Of a stretch of DNA of 59,919 nucleotides, positions 2,284 through 23,606 are shown piece after piece. Location: assembly GCA_012517255.1 (NCBI GenBank), contig JAAYVH010000027.1, positions 1 to 59,919 of the forward strand, written 5' to 3'. Under the pieces are notes generated by a model. The model worked only from the letters and a program-made list of their open reading frames with translations, had not been told where the DNA came from and ran no database searches. Origin of the DNA: Chthonomonadales bacterium. Lineage in GTDB: Bacteria; Armatimonadota; Chthonomonadetes; Chthonomonadales; CAJBBX01. The stretch's first letter is position 1; every line of letters begins with the position of its first letter. The translations under genes were made by a program, and so were the position numbers.

Positions 2284-2303
2284 CCGCATCGGATGACGAG
2301 AGG

Positions 2304-3434: not shown

Positions 3435-3539
3435 TCTACGCCCGGCCCGGCGTGCTGGTTACCGCACAGCGAAGATCCAGGCCGGAGCTCTGAACACGCC
3501 ATGCGCCGCGATCACGGCGCAGAAAGGAAACATGTACTC

Positions 3540-6500: not shown

Positions 6501-7940
6501 AAGCCTGTTGCCGGCACATGGAAGCTGCGCGTTCGCGACCTCAACTACTACGACGTCGGAACGCTCAACGGGTGGGGACTGGATCTCGCCATCTCAGGCT
6601 TCGCCGATCGCGTGACGACGACGGGGCCCGACGGCGCCTATTCCTTCGAGGACTGCATCGGAGGCACGCATAGTCTGGTCGCCAGGAAAGGCTGGCTCTC
6701 GTTCGATCCGAACCCTGCTGTGGTCGTCGTTGGTCCTCACCAGATGAACGTTGACTTTGCTGCCGTTGGTACGAGGACCGCTCTGACCGTACCGCCGACA
6801 GCCGGCGATCGCGGCGAGACCGTGGACCTGACGGCCGTCCTCACAACGGACGGCGGCGACCCGATCAGCGATCAGCAGATCGCCTTCGCCGTTGACGGCA
6901 CAGCGGTAGGCGAAGCAGTGACAGACGCGTCGGGAGTTGCCTCGCTGCCGTTCGCCATCCCCGGCGACGCTGTGATTGGTGACCTCGCTGTGCAGGCCGA
7001 CTTCATGGGTGCAGACCCGTACTTGCCCGCCACGGCAGTCGGTACCCTTACCGTCAAGGGGGCCCAGGTGCTTATCTACGGCCTCGATAGAACCGGCGTG
7101 ATCGGGTATTCCGTGGATCTGCGGGCGTTCCTGTACACGGCGGTTGGCCGCAATCCCATCCCCGGAAAGACGATCGGGTTCGCGGTGAACGGAACGCCGG
7201 TCGGCGATGCAGAGACAAGCGACACCGGGCGCGCCTCGCTCCCGTATGTTGTGGCTGGTCCGGCTGGCACCTACCCGCTGACGTTCACGTTTGCGGGCGA
7301 CATGGACTTCGGTCCCGGAACCGCATCTGCGACGCTGACCGCCCAGAAGCTGGCAACCAGCATCATCATCTCCGATCGGACCGGCAAGATCGCGAGCGCC
7401 ACGTCGCTCCGCGCGTTCCTCTACTCCCAGCCCGGATCCAAACCGCTGCAGGGCAAGTCGGTGGACTTCAGCGTCGACGGCACGGCGGCCGGCTCTGCCG
7501 TGACCACGCCCACAGGCCGCGCCCTCCTCTACTATCCGGTGCCGGATGAGAACGGTGCCGGAACCCGCACCATCCAGGCTTCGTTCGCCGGCGAGCCGGG
7601 ATATGAACCGGTGGCCGGCACGGCAACCCTGACAGTGGATCGGGCGCCGGTCTACATCTGGGCCACTGCAAAGACGATCATCGCCGGCCAGACGGCGACC
7701 TTGCGGGCGTACGTCCGGCGTCTGCCGGACTACCAGTGGCTGCCCGGACGCCCGATCACGTTCGCCGTGGACGGCACGGATGTCGGGGTCGCCGATACCG
7801 ACGGCAGCGGCGTGGCTCGCTTCAGTTACGCAGGCTCTGCCGCGCTGGTACCCGGGACCTACGGGTTCACGGCATCCTTCGCCGGTGATGCCTGGGTTGC
7901 GCCGGGCAGCGGCACAGGCCAGTTCAAGATCCTGCCGTAG
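3540..7940 (+). CDS. Secreted M36 (fungalysin-type) metalloprotease with P-domains and Ig-like domains
   Basis: Exported multidomain zinc protease, 1466 aa. A signal peptide is clear (RIRRLTVFALLAVLGGAAAFSLAQ). An FTP-type propeptide follows to about residue 200. The catalytic M36 domain has the zinc motif HEYGHA (about residue 402) and the downstream glutamate in MGEGFGDYWA, plus EVHADGEIWSACLW. After it comes an Ig-like module, then two proprotein-convertase-type P-domains alternating with carboxypeptidase-regulatory-like linkers. Both P-domains show DLEVALIHPDGT or DLEVSLIHPDGT and (I/V)AGTWKLRVRD. Four further Ig-like (Big-type) modules share VDGT and FAGD motifs. ATG 3540, behind AAAGGA, is preferred over ATG 3501 because it gives a normal signal-peptide N-region. 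It does not carry the C-terminal cassette of the 13.7-34.5 kb cluster. Its substrate is unknown. Confidence 0.88.
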   Translation: MRRLSMPRTRIRRLTVFALLAVLGGAAAFSLAQSGRKERAVETPNDKGTSAARQAYTLSPPEAGIIAGAIVQRDAATGRVLRVRGEVPMPGARSPEQAAERFLKANAETLGIAPNLGNLAHARTVSSLTGHHITYQQVLAGLPVLGGQVSVHTNKNLAVVLVNNGSIKIKGALPAVAPGNPNAAIGVALNALTLEVPPTIPPAASLAVFVQNDQPLLVWKVNVETRKPAGSWEILVSVPDGKVLQKVNRARFVDGVGMVFLPNPVNTSGNANLADDNDQDSAALTNERVAVTLKDLDGSGFLQGPYCTTAPTDMQPRANEPGLSYDYTRSDDRFEEVMCYYHIDAAQRHIQSLGFTNVNNRQQGMNVNGSEEDNAWYSPWTGDITMGTGGVDDAEDAHVIWHEYGHAIQDNQVPGFGASHEAGSMGEGFGDYWALTTFAGLGPNAPAWDVYVATWDATSYAPGNPAYLRRVDGTKHYPEGMIGEVHADGEIWSACLWQVREIVGAVRSDTIILESHFRLAPDASFQDGALAILAANRDLYGGADGDAIMQVFVDRGILLDPRLTALSVGSLPTRAGSDVVLSATLIRRLDDSPIAGKEVSFTVDGTGVGSALTSAGGVAELPFTVPADAQPGDYIVTADFAGDEEAFAASGDGKLYVLEMSHIAGSVTDSGVGMEGVPVTLTAADPKASDAPNAPIPDGDPGGVEVALELRNTGTVGDVSVSVDIAHTWIGDLEVALIHPDGTTVLLHNMTGGSDDNIVTTYPTLTPPAESLSVLQGKPIAGTWKLRVRDYYQQDSGTIRSWGLSIGRETPLIVDTVTGPDGTYLATDLEPGTWRVAPNNGHSAFKPEFRDITVGPSRDGVDFALNSFTIAGKATVNNQPAEDVLVTLTSPQDQAISYWDWPGVEIPDNNTKGIESPITITDPGTITDIRVGVSITHPYIADLEVSLIHPDGTRVRLHNRTGGNARDIVTSYPDQTRPAESLSALVGKPVAGTWKLRVRDLNYYDVGTLNGWGLDLAISGFADRVTTTGPDGAYSFEDCIGGTHSLVARKGWLSFDPNPAVVVVGPHQMNVDFAAVGTRTALTVPPTAGDRGETVDLTAVLTTDGGDPISDQQIAFAVDGTAVGEAVTDASGVASLPFAIPGDAVIGDLAVQADFMGADPYLPATAVGTLTVKGAQVLIYGLDRTGVIGYSVDLRAFLYTAVGRNPIPGKTIGFAVNGTPVGDAETSDTGRASLPYVVAGPAGTYPLTFTFAGDMDFGPGTASATLTAQKLATSIIISDRTGKIASATSLRAFLYSQPGSKPLQGKSVDFSVDGTAAGSAVTTPTGRALLYYPVPDENGAGTRTIQASFAGEPGYEPVAGTATLTVDRAPVYIWATAKTIIAGQTATLRAYVRRLPDYQWLPGRPITFAVDGTDVGVADTDGSGVARFSYAGSAALVPGTYGFTASFAGDAWVAPGSGTGQFKILP

Positions 7941-9097: not shown

Positions 9098-9201
9098 ACG
9101 TGGGCTCCTTTCGTACTCCGAGGCTCCGTTTCCTGCGACCTCCGGCCGCTGGGGAAGGACGGCCGCCATGGCGCGGCGTATGATAGCGATGGGAGGCTCC
9201 G

Positions 9202-10797
9202 ATGAGATCATGTCCGGTGTGCAGGCTATTCCTGGCGGAACGCGAGTGGCAGGGCAGTCCGAGGCTCGTATGCGCCAGCTGCGGCGGCGTCTGGCTGGAT
9301 GGTCCAGCGTTCGACAGTCTGGCTTCTGTGGCCAACTCGCCGCTGCCGGAACCGGACACGCTGTCGCCCGGCACGTCACAGCCGAGCGCGTTCGAAGGTC
9401 TGCTCCGCCTGTGTCCCGACTGCAAGACGACGGCGCTTGAGCTGACGGACGTCGAGAGCCTCGGACGGGAGATCCATCGTTGCCCGAAGTGCCGCGGTGT
9501 ATGGTGGCAGCCCCGACCGCCAGCCTCTCCGGCTCCGTCTGAACCGCCGCGACCACTTGCGGTGTCCGAGAGCGCTGCCACGCCGTCACCGGCTGCCGCT
9601 GCGCCAACGGCCCTCGATGAGGAGTATGGCCTCGCCGCTAACATGCCTGATCGTGATACGGGGCCGATCCTGCCGCTGTCGCTTTCGCCGGCTGCTCCGG
9701 AACTTGCAGAGATACAAGAGCTACCCGTCCATGGCCCCGACGATGCCTGGAAACGGCTCGTGGACGGTAACGCTCGATTTGCGGCAGGCCTGGCCCGGCA
9801 TCCGCGCAACTCACCGGATCGTGCGTCCGAGGTCGTAACTGGCCAGCATCCCTTTGCCGTCGTCGTATGCTGCTCGGATTCCCGCGTTCCGCCGGAGATC
9901 GTCTTTGATCAGGGCCTTGGCGATCTCTTCGTCGTCCGGTCCGCTGGCCACGTTCTGGCTTCCACCACCATGGCCAGCATCCTCTATGCCGTGGACCATC
10001 TGCACGTTCCGCTCGTGGTGGTCCTCGGCCATTCGGACTGCGGCGCCGTGACGGCCGCGGTCCGGTCGTCGGGCAGCCATCCGACCTATCTGGAGCCCCT
10101 CTTGCGCGTGCTCCGGCCTGCTGCCGAGCTAGCCGCGCCGCTTCGTGGCGATGCCGTGTGGGAGACGGTGCGCATTCACGCGGCGAGAAGCGCCGAACGG
10201 GTCAGCGAGGCCATAGGTTCGAATCTGCCGGATCTGCCGTCCTGCCGCGTGCAGGTGGTCAGCGCCGTCTATGATCTCCGCACCCGCCTCGTCGAGCGGC
10301 TCCCGGACACTCCGAAGGAGCCGAAGCCTGCCGAGGCCCATCATCCGCAGGCTGAGCCTGCCTCCGATCATAGCTTGAGCGCGTCACGCCCCGATGCCCC
10401 GCCCAGCCATGCTGACGCGGCTGCGGAGCTGACCCCGCCGGGCGACGCCGTCGCATCGCGATATCCGCGGTGGTGCCCGCGATGTCGCGGAGGCTTCGGG
10501 GCGCAGACTGCGCTCTGTCCCCGGTGCGGGGTGGTGCTGGTCCAGCCATGGTACAGGGTACCGTGCCTGAAGTGCAAGAAAGACAACCTCATCGGTCTGG
10601 ACCGGTGCTGGAACTGCAGGGCCGATCTACATCCTGACTGGCTCGTCTCGGGAGGCCGGGCGCCATCGCCGCCCAAGGTGTCTCTCAGACCGGTCATCAC
10701 GACACAGCGTGACGGCTCGCAGGGCTGCAGCACCAGCATCGTCCTATGGGCTGGAGTTGTCGCGCTGGGCTACGCGCTGCTGACCCGGCTGCTCTAG
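9202..10797 (+). CDS. Zinc-ribbon / beta-carbonic anhydrase / zinc-ribbon fusion with C-terminal membrane anchor
   Basis: A 531-aa fusion. Residues 1-100 hold two zf-TFIIB-like zinc ribbons (CPVC...CASCGGVWLD and CPDC...CPKCRGVWW). After a Pro/Ala-rich linker, residues about 178-360 form a beta-class carbonic anhydrase. This shows the zinc and catalytic residues of the family (CSDSR with Cys-Asp-Arg, and HSDCGAV with His and Cys) and WKRLVDGNARF at its start, so it should interconvert CO2 and bicarbonate. A second Pro/Ala linker leads to more zinc ribbons (CPRC...CPRC, CLKC...CWNC). The last ~22 residues (STSIVLWAGVVALGYALL) form a membrane segment, suggesting a tail-anchored protein. ATG 9202 follows GGGAGG. 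The beta-CA residues look intact; the fusion architecture is unusual, and the role of the ribbons is unknown. Confidence 0.85.
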   Translation: MRSCPVCRLFLAEREWQGSPRLVCASCGGVWLDGPAFDSLASVANSPLPEPDTLSPGTSQPSAFEGLLRLCPDCKTTALELTDVESLGREIHRCPKCRGVWWQPRPPASPAPSEPPRPLAVSESAATPSPAAAAPTALDEEYGLAANMPDRDTGPILPLSLSPAAPELAEIQELPVHGPDDAWKRLVDGNARFAAGLARHPRNSPDRASEVVTGQHPFAVVVCCSDSRVPPEIVFDQGLGDLFVVRSAGHVLASTTMASILYAVDHLHVPLVVVLGHSDCGAVTAAVRSSGSHPTYLEPLLRVLRPAAELAAPLRGDAVWETVRIHAARSAERVSEAIGSNLPDLPSCRVQVVSAVYDLRTRLVERLPDTPKEPKPAEAHHPQAEPASDHSLSASRPDAPPSHADAAAELTPPGDAVASRYPRWCPRCRGGFGAQTALCPRCGVVLVQPWYRVPCLKCKKDNLIGLDRCWNCRADLHPDWLVSGGRAPSPPKVSLRPVITTQRDGSQGCSTSIVLWAGVVALGYALLTRLL

Positions 10798-10813: not shown

Positions 10814-12829
10814 TTAGAACCGCGTCGCCTCGAGGTCCAGCATGAACCTGTGGTGCAGCGTGGAGTACGAGAGAACGAGATCGCGGCCAGCCAGGTTGCG
10901 CGCCAGCGATACGATATAGTCCGAGTAACTGCCAGCCGAGTAGCGATGGGCGCTCGCCGACAGTGACATGCGCCATCGGGGCGCGAGAAGATAATAGAGG
11001 TCGCCTACAAAGCTCATGGCGCCGGCATCGAGTACCATCGTGTTGTAGAGGTAAAGACCCCAGCGCTGCTCGCCGGAACTCAGGCTGAAGCTGAGCCGGT
11101 GATCACCCTCGGAGTAGTTCACGGGCTGCTTCAAGTAGTCGTAGCCCACCTGCAGCGAGCTGCTGCCGCCGAGGGATCGCATGGCGCTCACTGTCGCATT
11201 GACCGTGGCGCCTGTTGCGCCCCGCTTGCTCCATGTATGCCCCACCGACAGCGCATTGCTCAGCGTTGTTGAGCGATCCAGGCGTATCGAGGGCGTGAAC
11301 ATACGTGCCTGTAGCCCCTGCGTCAGACCGTAGCTTCTGAACTCCCCTGAGCGCGTCCGGGAGGTGGATATGCTGGCCCCCAGGGAGTACATGGCCCGTG
11401 TCGAAGCCAGCTTTGCGGGGATGGTCTCGACATAGGCATCGGCATGCGTGCCGGAGGAGCTCGGTCCCGTCAGGGTCGAGTTCGCCGAGGCGTTCAGACC
11501 GAGATACAGTCCGCCCATGCGGTGGCCAACGTTGCCGGACCCGAACACGCTGCGGTGCTGAGGGAAGTCGAGATGCAGGCCTGTGCGTGTGTCGGCTCCC
11601 AGCTCCTGGCTGTGGGTCCATCGGAATCCCCAGTCGCTCCGGGTAACGCCGGTGAATCCGAACTCGCCCGCATATCGGCCGCGCTGGGTCGAGTTATAGG
11701 CCTGGATCAGGTCCAGCGCGAGGCCTGGCCTCCGAGCATAGGCGCTGCCATATCGCTCGCCGTACTTGACGCGCACGAGCCCTCGCGACGCCGGCGTCAG
11801 ATCGTAGTAGAGGGGCAGGTCCACCCCTACGCCCTGCGTTCCGAGGCTCAGAAACTGATCGCTGAACAGCTGGTTTGAGTAGAGTGACAGCGAGTAGAAC
11901 GCGAGGGTGAAGAGATGCTGGCCGTCCTCATAGAAGCGCGGCCTCTTGAACTGCAGTTTCTCCCCGGGAAAGAGCGTGATCTGCCTCGCGACGATAACCA
12001 GCTTGGCATCGGCCGGGTCCGTCATCTCGAAGAACTTCGGCGCGATGCCGATGGCCACAGGCTCAGTCTTGAGATCCATGCCCTCGATCTGCACGGGAAC
12101 CAGCGAACGGCCCTGCTCCGCCACCGCGTAGCCCTTGCCGGTCATCACGTTGTAGAACAGCTTGGCCGCCCGCAACTCCGCCTTGCCGCGCTTGAGCGCC
12201 ACCATCCCCGACGCCCGGACGGTATTGGCCGAGCAGTCCACCTGCAGCCGCTCTGCCCGAAGCTCGAGGTTCCTGAAGCGCAGCTCTGCTCCGGCGAGCG
12301 CTGGCAGGCCGTTGGAGGGCGGACGCGACGCAGCATCTATCACCCGTTCGGCCGCCAGATAGGACAGAGCGCCGGACGCCGTCACAGAGACCCAGGTGTT
12401 GCCCTGAAACGTCTCTTCCGGGTCGTCCGTGAACAGCACATCCATCCGCTGGAATCCACCGCCAGCCACCGTGGCGCTCACGGTCGCCGTGCCCTTGCTT
12501 TGACTGGTCATCGTGACGCGTGCCGAGCCGGACCGCGTACGCACGGTTGCGCTGGGCCCCTCACGCGCGAAGATTCCGAGATTGGTCGTGAACACAACGG
12601 CCGTCCCATCAGGAACAAACCGCCCGGACCCGTCGCGCACCTCGGCGATGATCTCAACCGAGTCGCGCCCATCGCTGAGCGCAGCGAAGCGCGACGATGT
12701 CATGGTGATCGTGGGAGGTCCGGCTGCCCGACATACGCCGGCTATGCCCAGAAGCACGAGCGTTGAGCGCGCGAATCGCAGGAGTGAAATGGCTCGAACA
12801 GAAAAACGGGGATGCCGCGTGTCAGGCAT
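10814..12829 (-). CDS. LptD/OstA-like outer-membrane beta-barrel protein with N-terminal Ig-like domain
   Basis: Exported protein of about 671 aa. After a signal peptide (SLLRFARSTLVLLGIAGVCRAAG) comes an invasin/Big-type Ig-like domain at about residues 40-135 (DGSGRFVPDGTAVVFTTNLGI). An OstA/LptA-like stretch follows (RAERLQVDCSANTVRASGMV, then GKAELRAAKLFYNVMTGKGY), as in the periplasmic part of LptD. The rest is rich in alternating amphipathic strands with paired aromatic residues and ends in Phe (LDLEATRF), the usual C-terminal signature of outer-membrane barrels. A role in moving a lipid or polysaccharide to the outer membrane is inference. True LptD lacks an N-terminal Ig domain. In-frame starts at 12853 and 12871 are also possible; none has a good RBS. 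It is the last gene of the minus-strand envelope block. Confidence 0.7.
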   Translation of the reverse strand: MPDTRHPRFSVRAISLLRFARSTLVLLGIAGVCRAAGPPTITMTSSRFAALSDGRDSVEIIAEVRDGSGRFVPDGTAVVFTTNLGIFAREGPSATVRTRSGSARVTMTSQSKGTATVSATVAGGGFQRMDVLFTDDPEETFQGNTWVSVTASGALSYLAAERVIDAASRPPSNGLPALAGAELRFRNLELRAERLQVDCSANTVRASGMVALKRGKAELRAAKLFYNVMTGKGYAVAEQGRSLVPVQIEGMDLKTEPVAIGIAPKFFEMTDPADAKLVIVARQITLFPGEKLQFKRPRFYEDGQHLFTLAFYSLSLYSNQLFSDQFLSLGTQGVGVDLPLYYDLTPASRGLVRVKYGERYGSAYARRPGLALDLIQAYNSTQRGRYAGEFGFTGVTRSDWGFRWTHSQELGADTRTGLHLDFPQHRSVFGSGNVGHRMGGLYLGLNASANSTLTGPSSSGTHADAYVETIPAKLASTRAMYSLGASISTSRTRSGEFRSYGLTQGLQARMFTPSIRLDRSTTLSNALSVGHTWSKRGATGATVNATVSAMRSLGGSSSLQVGYDYLKQPVNYSEGDHRLSFSLSSGEQRWGLYLYNTMVLDAGAMSFVGDLYYLLAPRWRMSLSASAHRYSAGSYSDYIVSLARNLAGRDLVLSYSTLHHRFMLDLEATRF

Positions 12830-12860
12830 GAGCCGAACTCGACATCCCCCCATAGTTGCT

Positions 12861-12885
12861 CGCTCGATCATGTCCTGATCGAGCG
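12861..12885. repeat. Perfect 10-bp inverted repeat between two envelope genes
   Basis: CGCTCGATCA and TGATCGAGCG flank a 5-nt spacer. It lies just after the stop of the 263-aa gene and at the 5' edge of the barrel gene. With no T-tract it could be an operator, an attenuator or a processing hairpin. One candidate start of the barrel gene (12871) would lie in its loop. Confidence 0.55.
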
Positions 12886-12896
12886 CATATGGATTC

Positions 12897-13688
12897 CTAT
12901 CGAGGCGGAGGGGGCGGACTCTCGATACCCGAGCCGCCGCTGCCGCCACCGCCCGAAAGACCGATTCCCAGGCCAAGACCGATCGCGAGGAGTCCCCAGA
13001 CCCAGTCGTTGTTGCGCTTCTTCTTCTCGGTGGTGGTCTTCACCGGCTGCTCCACCACGACAGCCCCGCCCACGGGCGCCAGTTGCGCCATCAGCTTCTC
13101 GCTGGCCTGCCGGACCGCATCAAGGTTCAGCTCTTCTTCCTTGCTGCGCTCGTTGCCCTTGGCGCTGCTCGCGGACAGGCTGACATTCTTCAGCACCTGC
13201 CCGGTCTCTACTACCAGAATGCGCCCGCTGACGGTGACGGTCACCTGCCGGTCGCTTTCGTTGTACTGATAGTCGTCGAGCGAGCCGACACACACAGTGT
13301 CATAGCCAACCGCCTTGGCGACCTTCACCGACTTCCGGTTGTCCTCGGCGAACGGCGGGATGATGTCCGCCTCGGGTAGCTGCTGGTCATTGTGCAACCG
13401 TGCGACCGGCGGCCACGCCCGATAGAACGTCGTCACCGTGTACTGGTTGGACGCGATGAGCCTCGAAGCGGCTGCATCGGTCAGCAACGCCGACAGCTCC
13501 TCTGCATTGGTCGCAGTCGAGCTGGGCACATCGAACGGGAAGAGCAGCAGGGTCTTCTTGAGCACATGGCCCAGATTCCCCTTCTCAGCCCGCTTGCCGG
13601 TCTGTGCGCCGACCGAGGTTGTGAGCACGAGCGCCGCACACAGCATTCCACACAGCATCCATGCGCCATGCGGTCGTTTCGTCTTCAT
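12897..13688 (-). CDS. Exported CsgG/LpoB-like envelope protein with C-terminal Gly-rich membrane segment
   Basis: A 263-aa protein of unknown function. A signal peptide (MLCGMLCAALVLTTSVGAQ) is followed by an alpha/beta domain. That domain's pattern (LLLFPFDVP, SALLTDAAASRLIAS, VAKAVGYDTVCVGSLDDYQY, VTVSGRILVVETGQVL) resembles CsgG- or LpoB-type envelope lipoproteins that sense or build oligomers, but no lipobox is visible. The C-terminus has a Lys-rich linker, a hydrophobic stretch (WVWGLLAIGLGLGIGL) and a Gly/Pro-rich tail. ATG 13688 lies 12 nt after GGGGAGG; a TTG directly before it is also in frame. It sits between the 2374-aa surface protein and the barrel gene and probably belongs to the same envelope function. 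Confidence 0.6.
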   Translation of the reverse strand: MKTKRPHGAWMLCGMLCAALVLTTSVGAQTGKRAEKGNLGHVLKKTLLLFPFDVPSSTATNAEELSALLTDAAASRLIASNQYTVTTFYRAWPPVARLHNDQQLPEADIIPPFAEDNRKSVKVAKAVGYDTVCVGSLDDYQYNESDRQVTVTVSGRILVVETGQVLKNVSLSASSAKGNERSKEEELNLDAVRQASEKLMAQLAPVGGAVVVEQPVKTTTEKKKRNNDWVWGLLAIGLGLGIGLSGGGGSGGSGIESPPPPPR

Positions 13689-13715
13689 CAAGCTACGTTA
13701 CCTCCCCACATCGCG

Positions 13716-13737
13716 GGGACCGACCGTGGTCGGTCCC
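13716..13737. terminator. Hairpin after the 2374-aa surface protein gene
   Basis: Near-perfect palindrome with 10-bp arms (GGGACCGACC/GGTCGGTCCC) in the 67-bp gap between two minus-strand genes. It lacks a following T-run, so termination would be partial or depend on a factor. It may allow different expression of the giant structural gene and the genes behind it. Confidence 0.45.
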
Positions 13738-13755
13738 GTTGACGTGAACGTATCG

Positions 13756-16700
13756 TTAGCGCACCAGCGTGACCGGCAGTATCGCCGTCGCGGCGCGGCC
13801 CTCACCATCGGTGGCTGTCAGTTTCACAAGATAGGTTCCGCTCGGCACCGAGATGCCCTTCTGGTCGCGGCCATCCCACAGCAGGACGTTGGCGCCTTCC
13901 GTGGCCGATCTACCCTGCGAGAGCGTCCGAACCACATTGCCGGCGGAGCCGACGATCTGGGCGCGAACCGTCGCCGGTCCGGACAGCGTGTAGGCAAAGG
14001 CGAGGGAGCCTGCCGACCGGCCCGTGGTCTTGAGATCGCTGATGACCAGTCTGCTGTTGGCGGTAACTGGCCGAACGAGCAACGCGAACCTGCGAGCGCC
14101 CGCGTTTTCGCCGGAGTTGAACACGTAGGTGCCCGATGTTGCGAGAGCACGGGTTGTGTTCGTCGCCAGATCCACCAGCGTGATCTCAGCCTTGCGTCCG
14201 AGTACCGCCACGTTCGGGAACGCCAGCGTCACGTCAGCGTTCGCCTTGTTGGTGACAGCCTCGAAGGCAACAACCGTCTGGCCGGCTCTTGTCGGCACCT
14301 GTCCCGCCACCTCGGTCGCCGGTATCTGCTGGATCGAAGCGTATTCGCCGACAAACGGCGGCTTCTCGACGAACGCTCGGGTGGCCGGGCTCAGGCTCAG
14401 ATAGTTGTCTGCGTCGAGCCGATTGTCAAGCCGTGCCGTCACCTGGATGGCGTTGGCGGTCACGTCGGCATCTCTGCTGCCAGCGGCTGCCTTCGTTCCC
14501 GGGGTTGGCAGGATGATCTCGCAGGGCTGCAGCACGCGCACCCAGTAGCCGCGTCCGGGCTTCAGGACGCCGCCCGATTGGATGAGCGTGTAGCCGCCGG
14601 TTGTCGGGTTGTAGCCCCAGGCGTAGGGTCGGAGCACGTCGCCAGCGTTTGCCAACGGCAGGACGTTGCCCTGGAAGCGCACCTGCACGGCGCCCCAGTT
14701 GATGTCCTGGTTGAACACGGAGCCGATCATGTTCCAGCCGGGAGCCACACCGATCGTGTATGGCAACGTCTGATCCCAGATCTTGCCGCGCGGGTTCAGC
14801 GTTACGGCCTCGGTCGGCAGCGTCCAGTATGCACGTCCGCCTCCAGCGCCCGGGAAGGTCGCGTCGCGGTTGAGCGACACATACTTGCCGTTCGGCGGCA
14901 CCGTCGGCGACCAGACAACGAGATCGAGGACAGACACAGGAGCGGTCGACCCATTGCTGCGGACCGGGTTGAAGGTCAGCGACGGATCCGGCGTGACGGG
15001 CACGATCGGCAAGCTGATCATGTCGAGAACGCCGGCGGCAAGCGGCACGGCAGTTCCTGTAACCTTGAACGACGCTTCCGCTGCGGCGGCGTCATACGTT
15101 CCCGGTACGCCTATCCAGTCGAGCTTGACTTTCCAATCGCCCGTCTGGTCCAGCGTGGTGCTGGACGTGTACGTGAACGCGCCATCGGCTGCAGTGGTGA
15201 GGCTCGCCGTCGCTCCGCTGCCGTCGGGCTTCACCAGTTGCACGGCTACCTGCTGAGCGCCGATCGGCGAGTTGGTATCGAGCCGTCCTTGAACCGTTAC
15301 CGTGCCACCGACAACGATGGGACCGCCGGGACCAGCCGGAGGCTGCGAGACGCCGGTGATGACGAAGTAGGCGGTGTTCAGAGTCGGACCTGCGAGGTCA
15401 CCCGCCGCAGGATACCGAACGACCGCATCACTCACGGTGTCCTTGGCCTCGAACCTGTAGGAGTGGTTTCTCTGCCGCTCATCCCGCGGGAAGCGGAACT
15501 TGAACTCATAGAGGACGCCTACGCGGTAGTCGGTGCTTGTAGTCGCCCTGGTCATGTCATGGGCAACGCCGTCAATCAGAACGCGCACATACTGCGGCGC
15601 ATTGTTGTCAGCGTTCGTGTAGATCACCTGGTAGGTGAAGTCCGTCGACGGCGGTCCGAGCTGCGGTTTGAGCGTGCCGTCCGTCGGCGCGCTCAACGCC
15701 AACAGCGCATTCGACACTGTCGGACCGTTGAGATTGTTCAGGCTGGCAGGCGTCAATCCATCGGTCGCCCGGAAGCTGTAGGTATGAGCGCCCACAGCCA
15801 GCTCCATAGACGTGGTGTCGTAGCCGTAAATGACGCCGGTGCGGTAGTCGAATGGACCGGAGCCCTGCGGCGTCAGATTCACGGTCTTCTCTGAAGCCTG
15901 GCCTTCGTCAATCACCAGCTGGATGGACTGCGGCGCCGTGTTGTCCAGATGGGTGTACTTCACCCGGTAGCGGTAGATCGTTGATCGTATGCCAGCTATC
16001 GGGTCCAGCGTCCCGTCATTCGTGTTCGGGTCGGATGGCCCGGGCGCCGCCAGGACCGGAATGTTCCGGACGGACATGTTGGTGATGTTGGAGCCGCCAG
16101 CAGGAAGCTGCACGGTGTCGCCCATCGCTCCCGGTCCGTCGAACGCAACAAACCGGAACTGAATGTCGCCGGGGTCGATGTTCGACAGCTCGAGCTCATA
16201 GACAACACCGTTGGCATAGTCGTTGGAGGTTGCAACCATCGGCCTCGGCGTGCCCTCGTTCAGGATCAGGTGCACATAGTGATCCGCCTCGGGCACGTTC
16301 GGGTTGTTCTGGTCTATGTCTCGGTACGTTATCCGGAACAGGTACCGATCGTTCAGCGTGCCGACAAGCTGCGGCGTCAACTGGTTGTTCGGCCCGACGG
16401 TACTGACCACGCCAGAACCGACCTTGGTCACCTCCACCGTCGAAAGCTCAGGCGGGAAGTTGACCTTGGGGCCGCTGAGCTCACCCGTGGGCGGCAACAG
16501 CACGGTCTGGAAGCGGTCCTGCGCCTCAAACCGGAACGCATGCGTACCCGGCGGCAAGCGCTGCGGATCGCTCTCGTAGATCACGCCGTTCACGTAGTCC
16601 AGCGGATCACCCGTCTTCGGCTTCAGGTCGTAGATCAACGGCACGCCGCTCGGATTGACGATCACCTGGATCCGGTATGGCGCGATGTTGTCGCTGTGCG

Positions 16701-19700
16701 TGTACTTGACGCTGTAGACGTAGGTGTTGGCCTGGTTGCCGCGGTCGGGAGTGACGCTGCCATCAGACAGGGTCATGATCCCAGCGGAGTCGATCTGGAA
16801 CGCTGCCGGTACCGCGGGAACCGGGTCGGCAGGCTCCGTGTCATCCGAGGCCAGGAACTGGTAGATGTGGCTGCCTACCCCTATGGTAGAGCCTGGAATG
16901 GTCCACGTGTATACGACGCCAGCCTTGTAGTCGGCAACCGTCGGGTTTGCAGGCGTGCTGACCGGCTGGACGGCCACCGGCTGGCGGTTGATCTGCAGTT
17001 CCATCCTCGACGGGGCATCGCCCAGCATCGCATCGGTGTACTTGACGCTGAACACGACGTCCTGAGCGGCTGTCGCGGGGTTGGGCGCAACGCTCCAGTC
17101 GCTCAGCACCGGCTTGTCATTGACCAGGAGCTGCTGGTACGGAACGTAGCTCTGGGTCCGATCGCCCTGGAAGCCCACCGTGATCGTGTGCTGCCCAGGC
17201 TCGAGCGGAGCGCTCGGCGCGGTCAACTGGGCCCGGAAGCGCACTCCGTTCTGATAGGCGCCCGGAACGATCGGGTCAATGGCTGTCATCACGGTGTAGG
17301 TGTAGTTTGCCCCCGTCGTATCCGAGACCCACAGCTCGATGGGCCCGCGCCCGCTGTCTTCCGGCGCGCGATCGTCCTGGCTGCGGTACGTTACGGTGAA
17401 CTGGTAGAGCTGGTTGCTGCGGCCCTTCGGGAACGGCTCGATGGTCAGGTCGGTGAGACTGGCCGTGCTGGTGACCACGACCGGAAGATCCGCCGGAATG
17501 GGATCGCCATTCCCGTCGACATCATCGGCGAGAAGCGGACGTCGGCTCATCCCTGCGCCATCGGTTGCCTCGAAGTGATACACGTGATGGCCGATGGGCA
17601 GCGCCGTACCGCCTATGTATCGCACCTTTGTCCGGTAGTCCACCGGCGTCGGCGTATTCGGATCACGCTGCAGCGGGAACCGCGTGTTGTTGTCAACGAC
17701 GAGATAGACGCCCTCGGTCACGCCGTCGGTAAGGATCGGCGGCTGATTGTCGGCGTCGGTGTAGTCAATGGCGAACTGGAAGATGGTTGTGGTGTCGCCC
17801 GTGGTCTGCGAGATGGTCTTGTAGTTCAGCGGTTTGTCGTAAGCGTCAGGCAGATCAAGGACAGGAACGACGTTCTCGTTCACCACCGGTCCCACAGTCT
17901 GTTCGTACCGGTAGGACACCCGCACCACGTCGTTGGGGCCTGCCGTCGGGATGGTGATCCGTCCGGCAGCGCTGTCAACGGAGAAGTCCCCCGGAGCCAG
18001 CAGCGTAGAAACTCCGCCGGACGTCAGCCAGACGAACAGCGTCGGGTCATTGACCCATGCTCGCGTCCCGGCCGGGTCATCGTAGACCGTCGGAGCCACC
18101 ATGCGCAACACGCGAGCGGTGTTCAGTTGCAGCGATGTCGCGCCGGTGCCAACCGTGACCAGATTCGTCTGATCCACGCCGTCGCTCGTGCCAAACCGGA
18201 ACCGGTATTCCTGTCCCAGTCCGGCGGGCGCGAGCCGAATCGGCGCTGCCAGATGATACTGCACTCCGGATGCGTAGTTGGTACCGCTCTCGGACGGGAT
18301 CAGCGAAGTACCAGGGTCGGTGGTCAGGCGCTGGCCCGTGGCGCTGTCGTAGAGCTCGATGAATATCTTCAGGCTGTTCGGCGCATTGTTATCAGCATCC
18401 CGATACCGTACGAAGAAGTCGTACTTCGTCGCGGAGTTGTACGCCGTGTCGCTTGCTGCAACGCTGACCTCGCGGAGCTCTGGCGCGCTGTTGGCAATGA
18501 TCGTCGGACCCTCAATGACGTTGCTCGGGTTGCCGCTGTCGTCGCCTTGCGGGAAGGTCACCCATTCGCCAAACTCCCGGCGTATGGGCCGGTTCGAGGT
18601 CGCCCAGTTATCGCGGAACTGGAAGTAGAAGTTGTACTTGTTCAGCGGAACGCCCGGAAGCTGGTTCAAGACCAACCGGTACCGTCGTCCCTGAGCATAG
18701 CTATTGCCAGCATCCTCCGGAGCCTCGGTCATGCGATAGCGCCAGTGCTCCGGCTTGTTGTTGATGATCACCCATGCATCGGCCGGCGGATCGTTGTCGG
18801 CGTCGCGATACAGCACCTCATACACAAAGGACGTACCGAGAACGCCTGACGAGGGCGTCACCTTGCCGCCCGACAGCTCTGGCCGGTTGTTCACCCACGG
18901 CTCGAGCATGTAGTTCTTGCCAACGCGGTTGACCGATCCGAAGAACAGCGCGTCGTTTCGGTTGGGAAGGCTTGCGCCCTGCGGGTCATCTGCCGGGCGT
19001 CGCGGCCAGATGCAGCGGTTCACGCCATCGTCAGCTTCAAAGTAGATGGCATGTCGCCCCTCGTTGCCCGGCCCTAGCACTGTGTCGTAGTAGTAGAGCA
19101 CGCCCTGAGCGTAGTCTATCGCCCCCTGGTTCGGAGCGACCTGCATCATGTAGGGTCGCATCGAACCGTCGGCCATGCTGCCGATCCACACGCGGACCGT
19201 CAGCGGCCCCGATATGCTGACCTGGGGTACGTGCACCACGCGGACCTGGAACCGAACCTTGGTCTTAGTTGTCACGCGGGAGCGGCGAGCGTTCGACGCG
19301 AGGGTCGTGGTCGGATCATTGTACGGCGGCCACGGTTCTATGTTCAGCAGGTAGTTCGGCGGCTTCTGCAGGTTGCGGTTCTCGATCAGGTCATCCGTCC
19401 AGTGGCCGTCCACCAGGATGGGCGTAACGTACGGATGAACGTAGGGGATCTCCGCGTCCACGTTGCGCGGATCCGGCTCGTCACTGTCCTGCAGGCGTCG
19501 GTACCGCGTCGGGGTCTGCCCCCAGTTCTCTCTGTAGTCCGTCCATCGGCGATTGGGAGGATCCCCCACCGAGGTAGCGAGGAAGTTGTCGGCGTTCTGA
19601 TCGTTGCCGATCGCAGGATCCGGTCGAAAGTCAATGGACGATCGGATGTAGTAGCCCCACTGGCCGGCGCGTCCTCCCACGCCTGTGCTGTAGATCGGCA

Positions 19701-20880
19701 TGGGCGGTGGCGGCGACATGAACGCCGCGTACAGGATCGTCGAATCCAGCTCGTTGAACGAGGCATACACATTGGCGAACGGACGACCCGTGAAGGTCGT
19801 TCCTATGCCGCCTCCCAGCGGAATAGTCGGGAGGCCGTCAGGCACCGTGAACTGCGGCGACATGCTCTGAAGGTCACCGCCGAAGAACGTTGCCATCCCA
19901 TCCCACCAGAACTCCGTGGGTTCCATCGTGTAGGAGTAGATGACGCCGCTTGCCAGCGCCTGATTGGCCTGGGGATGAAGGAACGGTCCTTCAGTCGGAT
20001 AGGTTGCGAGCGGATCAATCTCCGGCGCCTGCATGGGGCTGACCCGTACGTTGCCGGCGGGATCAACGAGATACAGAAGTACGCCGGAGCGCAGCCGGTC
20101 ATAGCGGTCCTGGTTCCCGAACCACAGGTTCCAGTAGTCGAACGTGCTCGGCCGCTGGAAGAGTCCCGGCGGCAGGCCGCCCAGAGTACGAACCCTGACA
20201 CGCCACGTGAACCGGTGAGCCCCGCCGCCATCATTGGGCCTCGTGTCATCCTGCGGATCAACCCGCAGTCCGTTCCCGTTCTGGCCGGGTCCGGGCGCGA
20301 TATCATCGTTGCCGCTGGCATCCACCGGGATCAGCTCAACCGCCCACTGCCCTGACGACGTATCCCGCACCGATGGGTAGACGTTCACGTTCAGCGTGTC
20401 GCTGGCCGCCATCGAAGCCGTGCCCTGACTGTCCACTTCCCATGCTTCCACAGCCCAGTTCGAGGAGACGGTCCTGCCTGAGCCTGACAGCGGCACGGTA
20501 TGCCCGTCGGCAAGGTCCGGAATCGTGTTGCCCCGCACAAACGCTATCCAGAACGTATCTCGCCCGAAGCTGCTGCGGGTCATGTCACGTTCCATGGTGA
20601 CGCGCCGGCGCGATATGATGATGCCGTTTGTCGCATCCACAAGCTGAACGCCGAGGTGCAGGTTCGGCGTACCCACCAGGTTCGACGTGTCGGCGCTCGG
20701 CGAGACGACTGCGCGGAACACGAACCAGGTCTGCTCGGTCCCTGCCTCGGTCGAATCGTCCACCCGCACTGCGAAGCACTCCGCACTCACGTTCGGAGCG
20801 GCCATGGCAGGAAGGGCCATGAGCGCCCCAAGAACGCCCGCTGCAAAGAGCCAGCGCAGTACGCCGCGATAGGATTTCAT
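13756..20880 (-). CDS. Giant exported repeat protein (2374 aa) with C-terminal FlgD-like sorting-type cassette
   Basis: Very large predicted surface protein. A signal peptide (WLFAAGVLGALMALPAMA) follows ATG 20880, which has the RBS AGGGAGAG. The N-terminal ~500 aa are unique. The middle consists of about ten tandem ~120-residue modules with the recurring pattern Y-x-V-x-Y-x-D-x-D-N-x-x-P, then (N/A)GV(I/V)Y, then G-x-H-x-Y-x-F-x-A-x-D-G. The last ~430 aa hold VLDMISLPIVP, GWNMIGSVF and GYWVRV, and close with a FlgD-like Ig module (LLWDGRDQKGISVPSGTYLV) ending in TLVR. The same C-terminal cassette occurs in the 891-, 1000- and 1868-aa proteins of this cluster. It is likely a structural or adhesive surface component. 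No enzymatic motif was found. Confidence 0.8.
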   Translation of the reverse strand: MKSYRGVLRWLFAAGVLGALMALPAMAAPNVSAECFAVRVDDSTEAGTEQTWFVFRAVVSPSADTSNLVGTPNLHLGVQLVDATNGIIISRRRVTMERDMTRSSFGRDTFWIAFVRGNTIPDLADGHTVPLSGSGRTVSSNWAVEAWEVDSQGTASMAASDTLNVNVYPSVRDTSSGQWAVELIPVDASGNDDIAPGPGQNGNGLRVDPQDDTRPNDGGGAHRFTWRVRVRTLGGLPPGLFQRPSTFDYWNLWFGNQDRYDRLRSGVLLYLVDPAGNVRVSPMQAPEIDPLATYPTEGPFLHPQANQALASGVIYSYTMEPTEFWWDGMATFFGGDLQSMSPQFTVPDGLPTIPLGGGIGTTFTGRPFANVYASFNELDSTILYAAFMSPPPPMPIYSTGVGGRAGQWGYYIRSSIDFRPDPAIGNDQNADNFLATSVGDPPNRRWTDYRENWGQTPTRYRRLQDSDEPDPRNVDAEIPYVHPYVTPILVDGHWTDDLIENRNLQKPPNYLLNIEPWPPYNDPTTTLASNARRSRVTTKTKVRFQVRVVHVPQVSISGPLTVRVWIGSMADGSMRPYMMQVAPNQGAIDYAQGVLYYYDTVLGPGNEGRHAIYFEADDGVNRCIWPRRPADDPQGASLPNRNDALFFGSVNRVGKNYMLEPWVNNRPELSGGKVTPSSGVLGTSFVYEVLYRDADNDPPADAWVIINNKPEHWRYRMTEAPEDAGNSYAQGRRYRLVLNQLPGVPLNKYNFYFQFRDNWATSNRPIRREFGEWVTFPQGDDSGNPSNVIEGPTIIANSAPELREVSVAASDTAYNSATKYDFFVRYRDADNNAPNSLKIFIELYDSATGQRLTTDPGTSLIPSESGTNYASGVQYHLAAPIRLAPAGLGQEYRFRFGTSDGVDQTNLVTVGTGATSLQLNTARVLRMVAPTVYDDPAGTRAWVNDPTLFVWLTSGGVSTLLAPGDFSVDSAAGRITIPTAGPNDVVRVSYRYEQTVGPVVNENVVPVLDLPDAYDKPLNYKTISQTTGDTTTIFQFAIDYTDADNQPPILTDGVTEGVYLVVDNNTRFPLQRDPNTPTPVDYRTKVRYIGGTALPIGHHVYHFEATDGAGMSRRPLLADDVDGNGDPIPADLPVVVTSTASLTDLTIEPFPKGRSNQLYQFTVTYRSQDDRAPEDSGRGPIELWVSDTTGANYTYTVMTAIDPIVPGAYQNGVRFRAQLTAPSAPLEPGQHTITVGFQGDRTQSYVPYQQLLVNDKPVLSDWSVAPNPATAAQDVVFSVKYTDAMLGDAPSRMELQINRQPVAVQPVSTPANPTVADYKAGVVYTWTIPGSTIGVGSHIYQFLASDDTEPADPVPAVPAAFQIDSAGIMTLSDGSVTPDRGNQANTYVYSVKYTHSDNIAPYRIQVIVNPSGVPLIYDLKPKTGDPLDYVNGVIYESDPQRLPPGTHAFRFEAQDRFQTVLLPPTGELSGPKVNFPPELSTVEVTKVGSGVVSTVGPNNQLTPQLVGTLNDRYLFRITYRDIDQNNPNVPEADHYVHLILNEGTPRPMVATSNDYANGVVYELELSNIDPGDIQFRFVAFDGPGAMGDTVQLPAGGSNITNMSVRNIPVLAAPGPSDPNTNDGTLDPIAGIRSTIYRYRVKYTHLDNTAPQSIQLVIDEGQASEKTVNLTPQGSGPFDYRTGVIYGYDTTSMELAVGAHTYSFRATDGLTPASLNNLNGPTVSNALLALSAPTDGTLKPQLGPPSTDFTYQVIYTNADNNAPQYVRVLIDGVAHDMTRATTSTDYRVGVLYEFKFRFPRDERQRNHSYRFEAKDTVSDAVVRYPAAGDLAGPTLNTAYFVITGVSQPPAGPGGPIVVGGTVTVQGRLDTNSPIGAQQVAVQLVKPDGSGATASLTTAADGAFTYTSSTTLDQTGDWKVKLDWIGVPGTYDAAAAEASFKVTGTAVPLAAGVLDMISLPIVPVTPDPSLTFNPVRSNGSTAPVSVLDLVVWSPTVPPNGKYVSLNRDATFPGAGGGRAYWTLPTEAVTLNPRGKIWDQTLPYTIGVAPGWNMIGSVFNQDINWGAVQVRFQGNVLPLANAGDVLRPYAWGYNPTTGGYTLIQSGGVLKPGRGYWVRVLQPCEIILPTPGTKAAAGSRDADVTANAIQVTARLDNRLDADNYLSLSPATRAFVEKPPFVGEYASIQQIPATEVAGQVPTRAGQTVVAFEAVTNKANADVTLAFPNVAVLGRKAEITLVDLATNTTRALATSGTYVFNSGENAGARRFALLVRPVTANSRLVISDLKTTGRSAGSLAFAYTLSGPATVRAQIVGSAGNVVRTLSQGRSATEGANVLLWDGRDQKGISVPSGTYLVKLTATDGEGRAATAILPVTLVR
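15400..19280 (-). repeat. Region coding for about ten tandem ~120-aa modules
   Basis: Approximate extent of the internal protein repeats of the 2374-aa gene. Individual modules are recognisable by cores such as EVLYRDADNDPP, FVRYRDADNNAP, AIDYTDADNQPP, SVKYTHSDNIAP, RVKYTHLDNTAP and QVIYTNADNNAP. Each is followed by a GV(I/V/L)Y motif and a terminal F-x-A-x-D-G-like motif. The DNA copies have diverged, so this is an old protein-level repeat, not a recent duplication. Confidence 0.75.
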
Positions 20881-20930
20881 ATGTCTCTCCCTCAACCCCA
20901 ACGTAGCTCGTCTATGGGTGGATCCGACCA

Positions 20931-23606
20931 TCAGCGCGTCACCACCAGCGGAGCAACCACACGCGCGGTCTGCCCGTCACCGGATACCGCCTTGATCTCC
21001 ACCGTGTAGGTGCCCGCTGGAACTGCAACGCCCTTGCTGTCGCGCATATCCCAGATGATCTGGGCCAGCTCGGTCCCGCTGGTCGCTCGGCTTGTCAGGC
21101 GTCGAACCGCCGTTCCCGTCGGTCCAAGAACTCGAACGGTGAGCGCTGCGCTCTGAGTCGCCGCCACTGCAATGGTCGCCGTTGACCTGCTCCGGGACGG
21201 CGTGACATTCCACGACGTGATCCTGAAGGCGCCGCCAGCCGATCGCGGCTCTGCCGTGATCGTCAGTGAGCGCGTTCCGGTCGGGCCGGTGTTGATCGTG
21301 ATAGAACTGGCCTGCCGCATCGCGCGGCGTGGGCTGCCTGCATCATCGGCGATGTACAGCTCGTGGGTCTTAGGCAACGTGCCGATCTCGGGCCACGTGA
21401 TGGTCACATCGGTGTTCGGCTCGCGTGAAGTCACGGCTAGACGCCACGTCTTCGCGCCTCCGGCAGGCGATCGCATGTCTTGCGCGTACGCTTCCGCTCG
21501 GCCGCCAGTCTCCTCGCGGACGATGGCCATCGAGACGCTTTCCGCAGGCGCCGGAGGCTTCGCGACGTCCCGAACATCCGATCCGTCGAGAGCGTCGGGG
21601 CCTATCCCGATGAAGTTGCAGGCGTCCGAGGTTACGCCATCCGAAGCCTTCAACCGGAGACGCCAACCGCCGGAAGGCGCCACTGATCGCGACCATGCGG
21701 CGATCTGTGCGGCGCGACCGGTCGGCTTCGTGATGAGCAGCTCCAGGTTCGGCTTGTTAGCCTTGACCCAGTACCCCGCGACGGGCAACAGATCCGTGGC
21801 GTAGTCCTGATCGAACTCGTAGCTGCCCGTCGCCGGATTGTAGCGGAAGATCGCCGACGAGATCCATTGGCGGGTGACGCTCGCTGCATCCTGAACGCTC
21901 AGGGGCACCAGATAGTCAGGATCCGTGGCGTCCGTGTTGATCACGCGCACATCTGCCCAGCGGACGCGGAGCAGATAGGGGTTGGCTACCTGGTTCCACC
22001 CGCGGGCCAGCTTCACGCTGAAGTCCCCGGTGGGCGTCTGCACGGGCTGCGGGTCGTTGAGCGTCAGCGTCGAGTTATTCGAAAGGCGCAGCCAGTAGCC
22101 TTCGCCCGGATTGATGTACTGAACGGCCTGGTAGTGACCTGCGGCCGCGTTCCACCGCACGAGGTCATAGAAGCCGGATCCCAGCTGGATAGCGCCGGCG
22201 GGCGTCCGGTCGTCCAGCACGTAGGGGAACGAGACCATCTGCCAGCCCGCACCGAACTCCTGCGACGGCAAGGCTGGGATGTCAATGTCCCTGGCTACGC
22301 TGATGCCCTGGCCGCCGGGATCGGCGCTGATCGCCACAGAATAGGTCAGACGTCCGGAAATCGTCCCGGTTGGCACCACGTCCCACTTGAAGGTCGCTTC
22401 GCCGTCGGCTCCAATGGTCGCCACGGTCTTTAGCGACGTCTGGCCGGCCGCCAGCTTGAGACCCTCAGGCAACGACAGCACGGCCCTAACGTTGCCGATT
22501 GCCACGGTGTTCATGTTGTGGACGAACGCCGTGATCGCCATCGGGTTGGGCTGAAGCTGCTTGTCGGCCGGTTGCGACGGATCGTACGTCAAAGAAGGCG
22601 GTCCTTCAAGGCCCGCCGCAAGCCGCTGGCCGAACTCATATGCGGCGCCTGCTGCACCGAACACCATCGTCACGTCGCGCTTCTGCCCCGGAGCGTACTG
22701 CACCGGATTGTAGTAGACAGCCGCGGAGCCGTCCAGAAGGTCCCCCACGAACTCCTCGCCGGCAGTCGGGGTGAAGTCCCAAATAGACCCGGCAACGTTC
22801 TTGGTCAGCCCGAATACGAGCCGGTCCGGCCGCGTCGGATATGGCGAGCTCCCGCTCGGCAACAGGCTTGCACCAACGGTACTGGGGCTCTGCGCAGCCG
22901 CCGCGCGCCAGTAGGCGGGGATGAAGGTGCTGATCAGCGAAGTCTCGGTCCTGATCATGCCAGTGCGCGAGGTCATGACGGGACCATCAACGCTCTGGGG
23001 CACCGCGAAGTCCTGTGCGAAGCGCAGACCGACCGTGTGGGGTCGCGTGTCCTTATTGGTGACGGTGAAGGTGTACAGAACCATGTCGTACACCAGCCGC
23101 ATCTTCAGGTCAACCTGTATCTCAGGAATGGCGGGATCGGCCTCGGCGTCCGGTATCGTTCTCCACTTGGCCACGATCACCGTTGGGCTCACGACTGTCG
23201 GCACCTGCACCCACTCACCCGTGATATCCGTGTCCTCGGTGTCCTCATATCCCCACGCGATGTCCCAGCCGGGTACGCCTTCCGCCACAGTGCCATCTGC
23301 GAGGAATGGGGTGCCTCCGTCGATCCGGACCGTAACATAGCTTCCGATCTGCCCCAGATCCGTCGAGCGCGGCAACTGGAGCAGGACGCCGCCAGACTGG
23401 CCCGCTTCCACGATTCCGAATCTGCCGGCCACATTCACGCTGTTAAGATCATCCTCCTGGCCCACGGAAGCCGCCAGCTTGGAGTTCTGGATCGTGACAA
23501 GCGTCTGGCCCCATGCCGGCCGCATTGTGCCGGCCACCAGCGCCAATCCGGCCACCATCGCCGCAACCGGCATAATCCGCTTGCTGCGTGCGCTAAGCCA
23601 CCCCAT
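20931..23606 (-). CDS. Exported protein (891 aa) with C-terminal FlgD-like sorting-type cassette
   Basis: Function not recognised. ATG 23606 follows GGGGAGGA and begins a signal peptide (IMPVAAMVAGLALVAGTMRPAWG). The N-terminal ~450 residues are rich in beta-strand patterns, for example IVEAGQSGGVLLQLP and MVLYTFTVTNKDTRPHTVGLRF, the latter like a galactose-mutarotase or surface-layer fold. From about residue 450 the shared cassette starts: GWQMVSFPYVL, GEGYWLRL, GWNQVANPYLL, GYWVKAN, DVRDVAKPPAP, then a FlgD-like module (IIWDMRDSKGVAVPAGTYTV) ending in VVTR. The gaps to its neighbours are 71 and 50 nt, so it is likely co-transcribed with the subtilase and the 2374-aa protein. Confidence 0.75.
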   Translation of the reverse strand: MGWLSARSKRIMPVAAMVAGLALVAGTMRPAWGQTLVTIQNSKLAASVGQEDDLNSVNVAGRFGIVEAGQSGGVLLQLPRSTDLGQIGSYVTVRIDGGTPFLADGTVAEGVPGWDIAWGYEDTEDTDITGEWVQVPTVVSPTVIVAKWRTIPDAEADPAIPEIQVDLKMRLVYDMVLYTFTVTNKDTRPHTVGLRFAQDFAVPQSVDGPVMTSRTGMIRTETSLISTFIPAYWRAAAAQSPSTVGASLLPSGSSPYPTRPDRLVFGLTKNVAGSIWDFTPTAGEEFVGDLLDGSAAVYYNPVQYAPGQKRDVTMVFGAAGAAYEFGQRLAAGLEGPPSLTYDPSQPADKQLQPNPMAITAFVHNMNTVAIGNVRAVLSLPEGLKLAAGQTSLKTVATIGADGEATFKWDVVPTGTISGRLTYSVAISADPGGQGISVARDIDIPALPSQEFGAGWQMVSFPYVLDDRTPAGAIQLGSGFYDLVRWNAAAGHYQAVQYINPGEGYWLRLSNNSTLTLNDPQPVQTPTGDFSVKLARGWNQVANPYLLRVRWADVRVINTDATDPDYLVPLSVQDAASVTRQWISSAIFRYNPATGSYEFDQDYATDLLPVAGYWVKANKPNLELLITKPTGRAAQIAAWSRSVAPSGGWRLRLKASDGVTSDACNFIGIGPDALDGSDVRDVAKPPAPAESVSMAIVREETGGRAEAYAQDMRSPAGGAKTWRLAVTSREPNTDVTITWPEIGTLPKTHELYIADDAGSPRRAMRQASSITINTGPTGTRSLTITAEPRSAGGAFRITSWNVTPSRSRSTATIAVAATQSAALTVRVLGPTGTAVRRLTSRATSGTELAQIIWDMRDSKGVAVPAGTYTVEIKAVSGDGQTARVVAPLVVTR

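What the first reader, a model, noticed from the sequence alone, without database searches (positions are those of the whole stretch)
9202..10797. Membrane-tethered beta-carbonic anhydrase flanked by zinc ribbons on both sides
The C-x-D-x-R and H-x-x-C catalytic set of a beta-carbonic anhydrase is intact. It is embedded between two N-terminal zf-TFIIB-like ribbons and at least two C-terminal ribbons, and the chain ends in a single hydrophobic segment. I know of no characterised carbonic anhydrase with this architecture. The ribbons may mediate oligomerisation, protein binding or zinc delivery.
Basis: partly seen in the sequence, partly recalled or inferred. Interest (0 to 1): 0.7.

Follow-up and report, generated by a model that had tools for sequence, protein, structure and literature searches.

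The report
Membrane-tethered carbonic anhydrase with zinc ribbons
One family of uncultured Armatimonadota bacteria carries its carbonic anhydrase (in most of them the only one of the usual bacterial kind) inside a larger protein that has conserved zinc-binding ribbons on both sides and a membrane anchor at the end, an arrangement not found in any other group searched here.

Summary
The ORF at 9202-10797 encodes 531 aa: a double zf-TFIIB ribbon unit, a Pro/Ala-rich linker, a complete beta-carbonic anhydrase (CA) domain, a second linker, two more C4 ribbons, a Cys, and a terminal transmembrane helix. It is not an assembly join: 11 of 12 genomes of the same bacterial family (phylum Armatimonadota) carry an ortholog. 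All eight N-terminal ribbon Cys and all catalytic residues are invariant in 11/11, the eight C-terminal Cys in 10/10, and the tail anchor with its preceding Cys in 9/11. The C-terminal ribbons (mean pairwise identity 51%) are better conserved than the CA domain (42%); the linkers are not conserved. I found this architecture nowhere else in 291 Armatimonadota genomes, in about 1,190 genomes of three other phyla, in 80 named CA loci, or in the open-access papers searched. It is the only beta-CA in the window's genome, which also has no alpha-CA or RuBisCO. Best reading: an active housekeeping beta-CA held on the cytoplasmic face of the inner membrane, with the ribbons as docking or assembly modules. 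Catalysis and anchoring are well supported by sequence; the role of the ribbons is inferred. New variant of a known kind.

The parts
9191..9196 (+). GGGAGG ribosome-binding-site-like hexamer, 5 bases before the ATG
   Evidence: read directly
9202..10797 (+). whole gene: ribbon-flanked, tail-anchored beta-carbonic anhydrase, 531 aa
   Evidence: full-length orthologs
9211..9321 (+). zf-TFIIB ribbon 1 (residues 4-40; C4 C7 C24 C27 invariant in 11/11)
9412..9504 (+). zf-TFIIB ribbon 2 (residues 71-101; C71 C74 C94 C97 invariant in 11/11)
9514..9732 (+). Pro/Ala-rich linker (residues 105-177), unconserved, predicted disordered
9733..10299 (+). beta-carbonic anhydrase domain (residues 178-366; Pfam Pro_CA core 219-361)
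9871..9885 (+). C224-x-D226-x-R228: zinc ligand and Asp-Arg pair
   Evidence: invariant in 11/11
10030..10041 (+). H277-x-x-C280: zinc ligands
   Evidence: invariant in 11/11
10300..10461 (+). Pro/Ala/Ser-rich linker (residues 367-420), unconserved
10474..10617 (+). C-terminal pair of C4 ribbons (residues 425-472), eight Cys invariant in 10/10
   Evidence: (DZR below cut-off); an ortholog reaches DZR E=1.4e-5
10726..10728 (+). Cys509, invariant in the 9 orthologs that have a tail anchor, directly before the hydrophobic segment
10729..10791 (+). C-terminal transmembrane helix (residues 510-530)
10814..12976 (-). convergent neighbour: about 720-aa protein with a Big_1 domain; same convergent partner in all 10 family loci where it can be seen, including the window
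12897..13691 (-). conserved neighbour, 264 aa, no Pfam family
13756..20931 (-). conserved neighbour, 2391-aa protein with FlgD_ig domain

Best explanation
This is a catalytically competent beta-class carbonic anhydrase that serves as the cell's main CO2/bicarbonate interconverting enzyme. It is made in the cytoplasm and inserted after translation by its C-terminal tail, so that the CA domain and all four zinc ribbons face the cytoplasm at the inner membrane. The CA domains should pair as in other beta-CAs. The flexible Pro/Ala linkers let the N-terminal double zf-TFIIB unit and the C-terminal C4 ribbon pair reach out as docking or assembly modules that fix the enzyme to a partner or into clusters at the membrane. 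Shown by sequence and prediction: the CA fold and complete active-site set, the ribbon cysteines under strong constraint, the predicted TM helix, and that no other beta-CA or alpha-CA was found in the genome. Inferred: activity, cytoplasmic topology, and docking by the ribbons. The partner is unknown.
For: CA fold: best sequence and structure match is M. tuberculosis Rv3588c (phmmer 7e-36; Foldseek 2a5v, TM 0.85 on the target). The catalytic set is invariant in 11 orthologs of which ten are only 34-51% identical to this one. It is the only Pro_CA in the window's genome and in 8 of the 11 carriers, with no alpha-CA and no RuBisCO, which fits a housekeeping rather than a carbon-fixing role. Ribbon Cys are invariant and the C-ribbons (51% mean identity) exceed the CA domain (42%) while the linkers are free, so the ribbons are selected. 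The N-terminal unit aligns over its whole length, spacer included, to ribbon-only proteins and to the tails of HtpX-like M48 proteases of the phylum (hhalign E 1.3e-18 and 2.3e-16; Pfam), so it is a reusable module. Tail: helix 510-530, 4-8 Lys/Arg in the 35 residues before the last 25. No hydrophobic segment at the N-terminus, and C4 ribbons need reduced cysteines (general knowledge), which points to the cytoplasm.
Against: No activity, localisation or partner data exist. Two of 11 orthologs lack the tail helix (G004) or the tail and C-ribbons (G002), so anchoring is not indispensable, though those assemblies are fragmented. The relative orientation of ribbons and CA is not predicted with confidence (pTM 0.50). 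The conserved neighbouring genes are convergent, not co-directional, so they name no partner. A gamma-class CA or MpsAB-type bicarbonate transporter in the genome was not tested.
Confidence: 0.6

Rival explanations
1. Domain accretion without a specific partner: the ribbons and linkers only stabilise or space the enzyme, in a bacterial group that attaches zinc ribbons to many proteins.
For: zf-TFIIB ribbons occur in several other proteins of these genomes; tail and C-ribbons are missing in one or two orthologs.
Against: All 16 ribbon Cys are invariant where present, and the C-ribbons are more conserved than the enzyme; one locus (G003) even duplicated the C-ribbon pair.
Confidence: 0.15
2. Regulatory or sensor protein: the CA domain reports CO2/bicarbonate or zinc, and the ribbons bind a protein or nucleic acid output.
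For: Flexible multi-ribbon arrangement and membrane anchor; ribbons often bind nucleic acid or protein (general knowledge).
Against: Complete, invariant catalytic set and it is the only beta-CA in the genome, so loss of catalysis would leave none of that class or of the alpha class; no signalling partner gene next to it.
Confidence: 0.12
3. Zinc buffering or delivery: the ribbons hold zinc and pass it to the CA active site.
For: Four C4 sites surround a zinc enzyme.
Against: zf-TFIIB and DZR ribbons are normally structural tight sites (general knowledge); the same N-terminal unit is attached to M48 proteases and occurs alone; beta-CAs elsewhere load zinc without ribbons.
Confidence: 0.08
4. 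The protein is exported, with the CA in the periplasm like many of its signal-peptide-bearing relatives.
For: Many related beta-CAs have an upstream hydrophobic segment (61 of 127 frames by a crude hydropathy test that also reads untranslated frame); signal peptides are known in beta-CAs (PMC5746736).
Against: No N-terminal signal in any of 11 orthologs; the chain starts directly with a ribbon; the only terminal hydrophobic segment is at the C-terminus.
Confidence: 0.04
5. Artefact: frameshift or assembly join between a CA gene and ribbon genes.
For: The genome is a draft in 327 contigs.
Against: Same architecture in 11 assemblies of 8 genera, with conserved synteny.
Confidence: 0.01

Closest known systems
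Beta-carbonic anhydrase Rv3588c of Mycobacterium tuberculosis (PDB 2a5v, 1ym3) and NCBIfam PRK15219 'carbonic anhydrase family protein'
   Same: CA domain: 37-38% identity over about 200 columns, same fold, same CxDxR / HxxC set
   Different: These are CA domains alone; no ribbons, linkers or tail anchor. PRK15219 is matched at 78.7 bits against a 221-bit cut-off, so the protein is not a member of that NCBI subfamily
HtpX-like M48 proteases with a C-terminal double zf-TFIIB unit (L170, L171) and ribbon-only proteins with two such units around a DZR ribbon (L160-L163, L166, L167, L169)
   Same: Same two-ribbon unit including its spacer (hhalign E 2.3e-16 and 1.3e-18); the last C-terminal ribbon also resembles the central ribbon of the ribbon-only proteins
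   Different: Different enzyme or none; the unit sits at the other end in the proteases; no CA
CcaA, the beta-CA of carboxysomes (PDB 5swc)
   Same: A beta-CA with an extra C-terminal part that places it in a larger assembly (placement from general knowledge; the fold match is)
   Different: No zinc ribbons and no membrane anchor; works with RuBisCO, which this genome lacks
SulP-type transporters fused to beta-CA-like domains (general knowledge, not tested here)
   Same: CA tied to the membrane
   Different: Those are multi-pass transporters; here there is a single tail helix and four ribbons

Membership tests
Beta-class carbonic anhydrase | Pro_CA fold | tested here: met
   Pfam PF00484 E=3.9e-31, 108.9 bits vs 25.7 cut-off; Foldseek to 2a5v E=3.9e-19
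Beta-class carbonic anhydrase | Zinc ligands Cys-His-Cys with Asp-Arg pair (CxDxR, HxxC) | tested here: met
   C224, D226, R228, H277, C280, invariant in 11/11
Beta-class carbonic anhydrase | Dimer or tetramer | not testable with these tools
   only single-chain prediction was available
Beta-class carbonic anhydrase | CO2 hydration activity | not testable with these tools
   needs an assay
Zn_ribbon_TFIIB (PF13453) | Two C4 ribbons over the curated score | tested here: met
   40.3 bits vs 22, two stretches; each over the cut-off
DZR double zinc ribbon (PF12773) | Score over the curated cut-off | tested here: not met
   16.9 vs 27.3 bits for this protein; the one ortholog tried reaches 25.6. 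The eight Cys are nevertheless invariant
NCBIfam PRK15219 subfamily | Score over the curated cut-off | tested here: not met
   78.7 vs 221 bits
Clade D beta-CA / COS hydrolase | Short (about 163 aa) clade D sequence type (PMC8209446) | tested here: inconclusive
   nearest solved relative is Rv3588c at 7e-36; no clade D reference tree was built here
Tail-anchored membrane protein | Single C-terminal TM helix with almost nothing after it and no N-terminal signal | tested here: met
   (9 of 11 orthologs)
Tail-anchored membrane protein | Membrane localisation in cells | not testable with these tools
   needs fractionation or reporter fusions

The most novel reading that the evidence does not exclude
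A membrane-bound CO2/bicarbonate hub: the CA domain works both as enzyme and sensor, and the conserved ribbons dock a specific effector (protein or nucleic acid) whose activity follows local CO2 or zinc status. That would be a regulatory type of carbonic anhydrase not previously described.
Probability: 0.1. Interest if true: 0.75.

Novelty: new variant of a known kind. Interest (0 to 1): 0.45.

Why it matters
Bacterial CAs are usually treated as free cytoplasmic or secreted enzymes. Here a whole bacterial family keeps its beta-CA (in most members the only one) in a ribbon-flanked, membrane-tethered form whose C-terminal ribbons are better conserved than the enzyme itself. This makes a plain question testable: why would a cell need its CO2/bicarbonate enzyme at a fixed place, and what do the zf-TFIIB ribbon units attached to unrelated enzymes in Armatimonadota bind?

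Tried and rejected
Assembly join or frameshift: rejected by 11 orthologs. Single-protein pattern scan of genome contigs: no hit; the alignment scan returned 80 beta-CAs whose matches cover the CA region only, and in the 40 whose open frames I checked for CxxC motifs only one CxxC was seen and no ribbon pairs. Frameshift check for the missing tails of G002 and G004: no ribbon or TM tail found in other frames, so they are reported as shorter variants or assembly effects. CA-domain tree (quick method; the careful search did not finish): too weakly resolved to show one or several origins; one origin is not ruled out. Searches of Chloroflexota and Acidobacteriota at E<=1e-75 were empty; they had no positive control inside those phyla, and a partial architecture could fall below that threshold. 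Literature: no paper in the open-access library joins carbonic anhydrase with zf-TFIIB, or beta-carbonic anhydrase with zinc ribbon, and the one paper that holds 'carbonic anhydrase', 'zinc ribbon' and 'domain architecture' is off-topic. Subscription papers and InterPro architecture tables could not be searched.

Full report
Observation. The ORF at 9202-10797 (+) is real: 531 aa from an ATG preceded by GGGAGG at 9191-9196. Pfam finds Pro_CA (3.9e-31) and two Zn_ribbon_TFIIB stretches (2.1e-10); the C-terminal eight-Cys region resembles DZR but stays below that model's cut-off.

Conservation. A protein search of 61 related genomes found the full architecture in the window's own bacterial family only. 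A profile of 11 orthologs (A1) recovered it in 11 of the 12 held genomes of that family, covering all 8 genera. The twelfth (G009) has no Pro_CA at all. In 291 genomes of the phylum no listed match outside that family has it; all other strong matches cover the CA domain only, and weaker ones the N-terminal ribbon unit only. In 392 Planctomycetota genomes all matches were CA-only. About 400 genomes each of Chloroflexota and Acidobacteriota gave nothing at E<=1e-75 (no positive control there). The phylum is Armatimonadota: locus L063, titled Chthonomonadaceae bacterium, lies in G061, and the same match appears as G125 in the phylum list (L063 is printed as Armatimonadota).

What is constrained. 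The eight N-terminal ribbon Cys and C224, D226, R228, H277, C280 are invariant in 11/11. The eight C-terminal Cys are invariant in the 10 that have the region. Cys509, just before the tail helix, is invariant in the 9 that have the tail. Mean pairwise identity: ribbon 1 41%, ribbon 2 41%, CA 42%, C-ribbons 51%, linkers 23-25% with many gaps. So the ribbons are selected parts, joined by free Pro/Ala-rich linkers. Variants: G003 carries a second C-terminal ribbon pair, G004 lacks the tail helix and G002 lacks tail and C-ribbons.

Enzyme. The closest solved relative by sequence and by fold is Rv3588c of M. tuberculosis. [quoted passage not shown] This is the only Pro_CA in the window's genome and in 8 of the 11 carriers; the genome has no alpha-CA and no RuBisCO. 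Most bacteria need a CA or a bicarbonate transporter to supply inorganic carbon (abstract of PMC8567241), so a housekeeping role is the plain reading. Gamma-CA and MpsAB were not tested.

Topology. Only the last 20 or so residues form a terminal hydrophobic segment in the tailed orthologs, with 4-8 basic residues in the 35 residues before the last 25. AlphaFold2 predicts that helix, a confident CA domain and disordered linkers (mean pLDDT 68, pTM 0.50). C4 ribbons need reduced cysteines, so the cytoplasm is expected (general knowledge). The tail-anchored, N-in topology is therefore inferred, not shown.

Origin of the ribbons. The N-terminal 105 residues align end to end, spacer included, with ribbon-only proteins and with the tails of HtpX-like M48 proteases of the same phylum (hhalign E 1.3e-18 and 2.3e-16; Pfam). 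The last C-terminal ribbon resembles the central DZR ribbon of those ribbon-only proteins (E 4.9e-8). The CA was thus joined to a module set already in use. Shared synteny supports orthology: a convergent Big_1 protein of about 660-720 aa lies beside or near the gene in all 10 loci where it can be seen (nine plus the window), followed in nine of them by a 264-aa-type protein and in most by a large FlgD_ig-type protein. The CA-domain tree is too weak to decide on one origin.

Mechanism. Best supported: an active beta-CA at the cytoplasmic face of the inner membrane with ribbons as docking or assembly modules. Catalysis about 0.9 likely, anchoring about 0.8 for this protein, docking by ribbons about 0.5; overall 0.6. 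Rivals are listed in their field.

Novelty. The parts are known; the combination was not found in any library, genome set or paper searched here. I file it as a new variant of a known kind (a beta-CA), not a new system. Limits: open-access papers only, no InterPro architecture table, and genome sets sampled rather than complete.

Noticed in passing
window 10814-20931: Conserved neighbouring block on the minus strand: about 720-aa Big_1 protein, 264-aa protein without Pfam family, and a 2391-aa FlgD_ig-type protein; found next to the CA gene across the family. Looks like a surface or secretion cassette.
   Followed up: partly
window 10726-10728 (residue 509): Cys directly before the C-terminal membrane helix, invariant in all 9 tailed orthologs; no explanation.
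   Followed up: partly
L160-L163, L166, L167, L169: Ribbon-only proteins of about 300-350 aa made of two double zf-TFIIB units around a DZR ribbon, in several Armatimonadota; function unknown.
   Followed up: partly
L170, L171: HtpX-like M48 proteases carrying the same double zf-TFIIB unit as a C-terminal tail.
   Followed up: partly
L008 and L137 (G003): Ortholog with a duplicated C-terminal ribbon pair (eight extra Cys) between the CA domain and the usual pair.
   Followed up: partly
G009 genome: The one family member without any Pro_CA match (92% complete), though its genus mate G007 has the fusion protein.
   Followed up: no
L084:9866-11815: Planctomycetia protein with two tandem beta-CA domains in one chain followed by hydrophobic segments.
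   Followed up: no
window 118-7940: dnaG primase and rpoD-type sigma factor adjacent (118-3434), followed at 3501-7940 by an M36 fungalysin-like protein with P-domains and Ig repeats.
   Followed up: no
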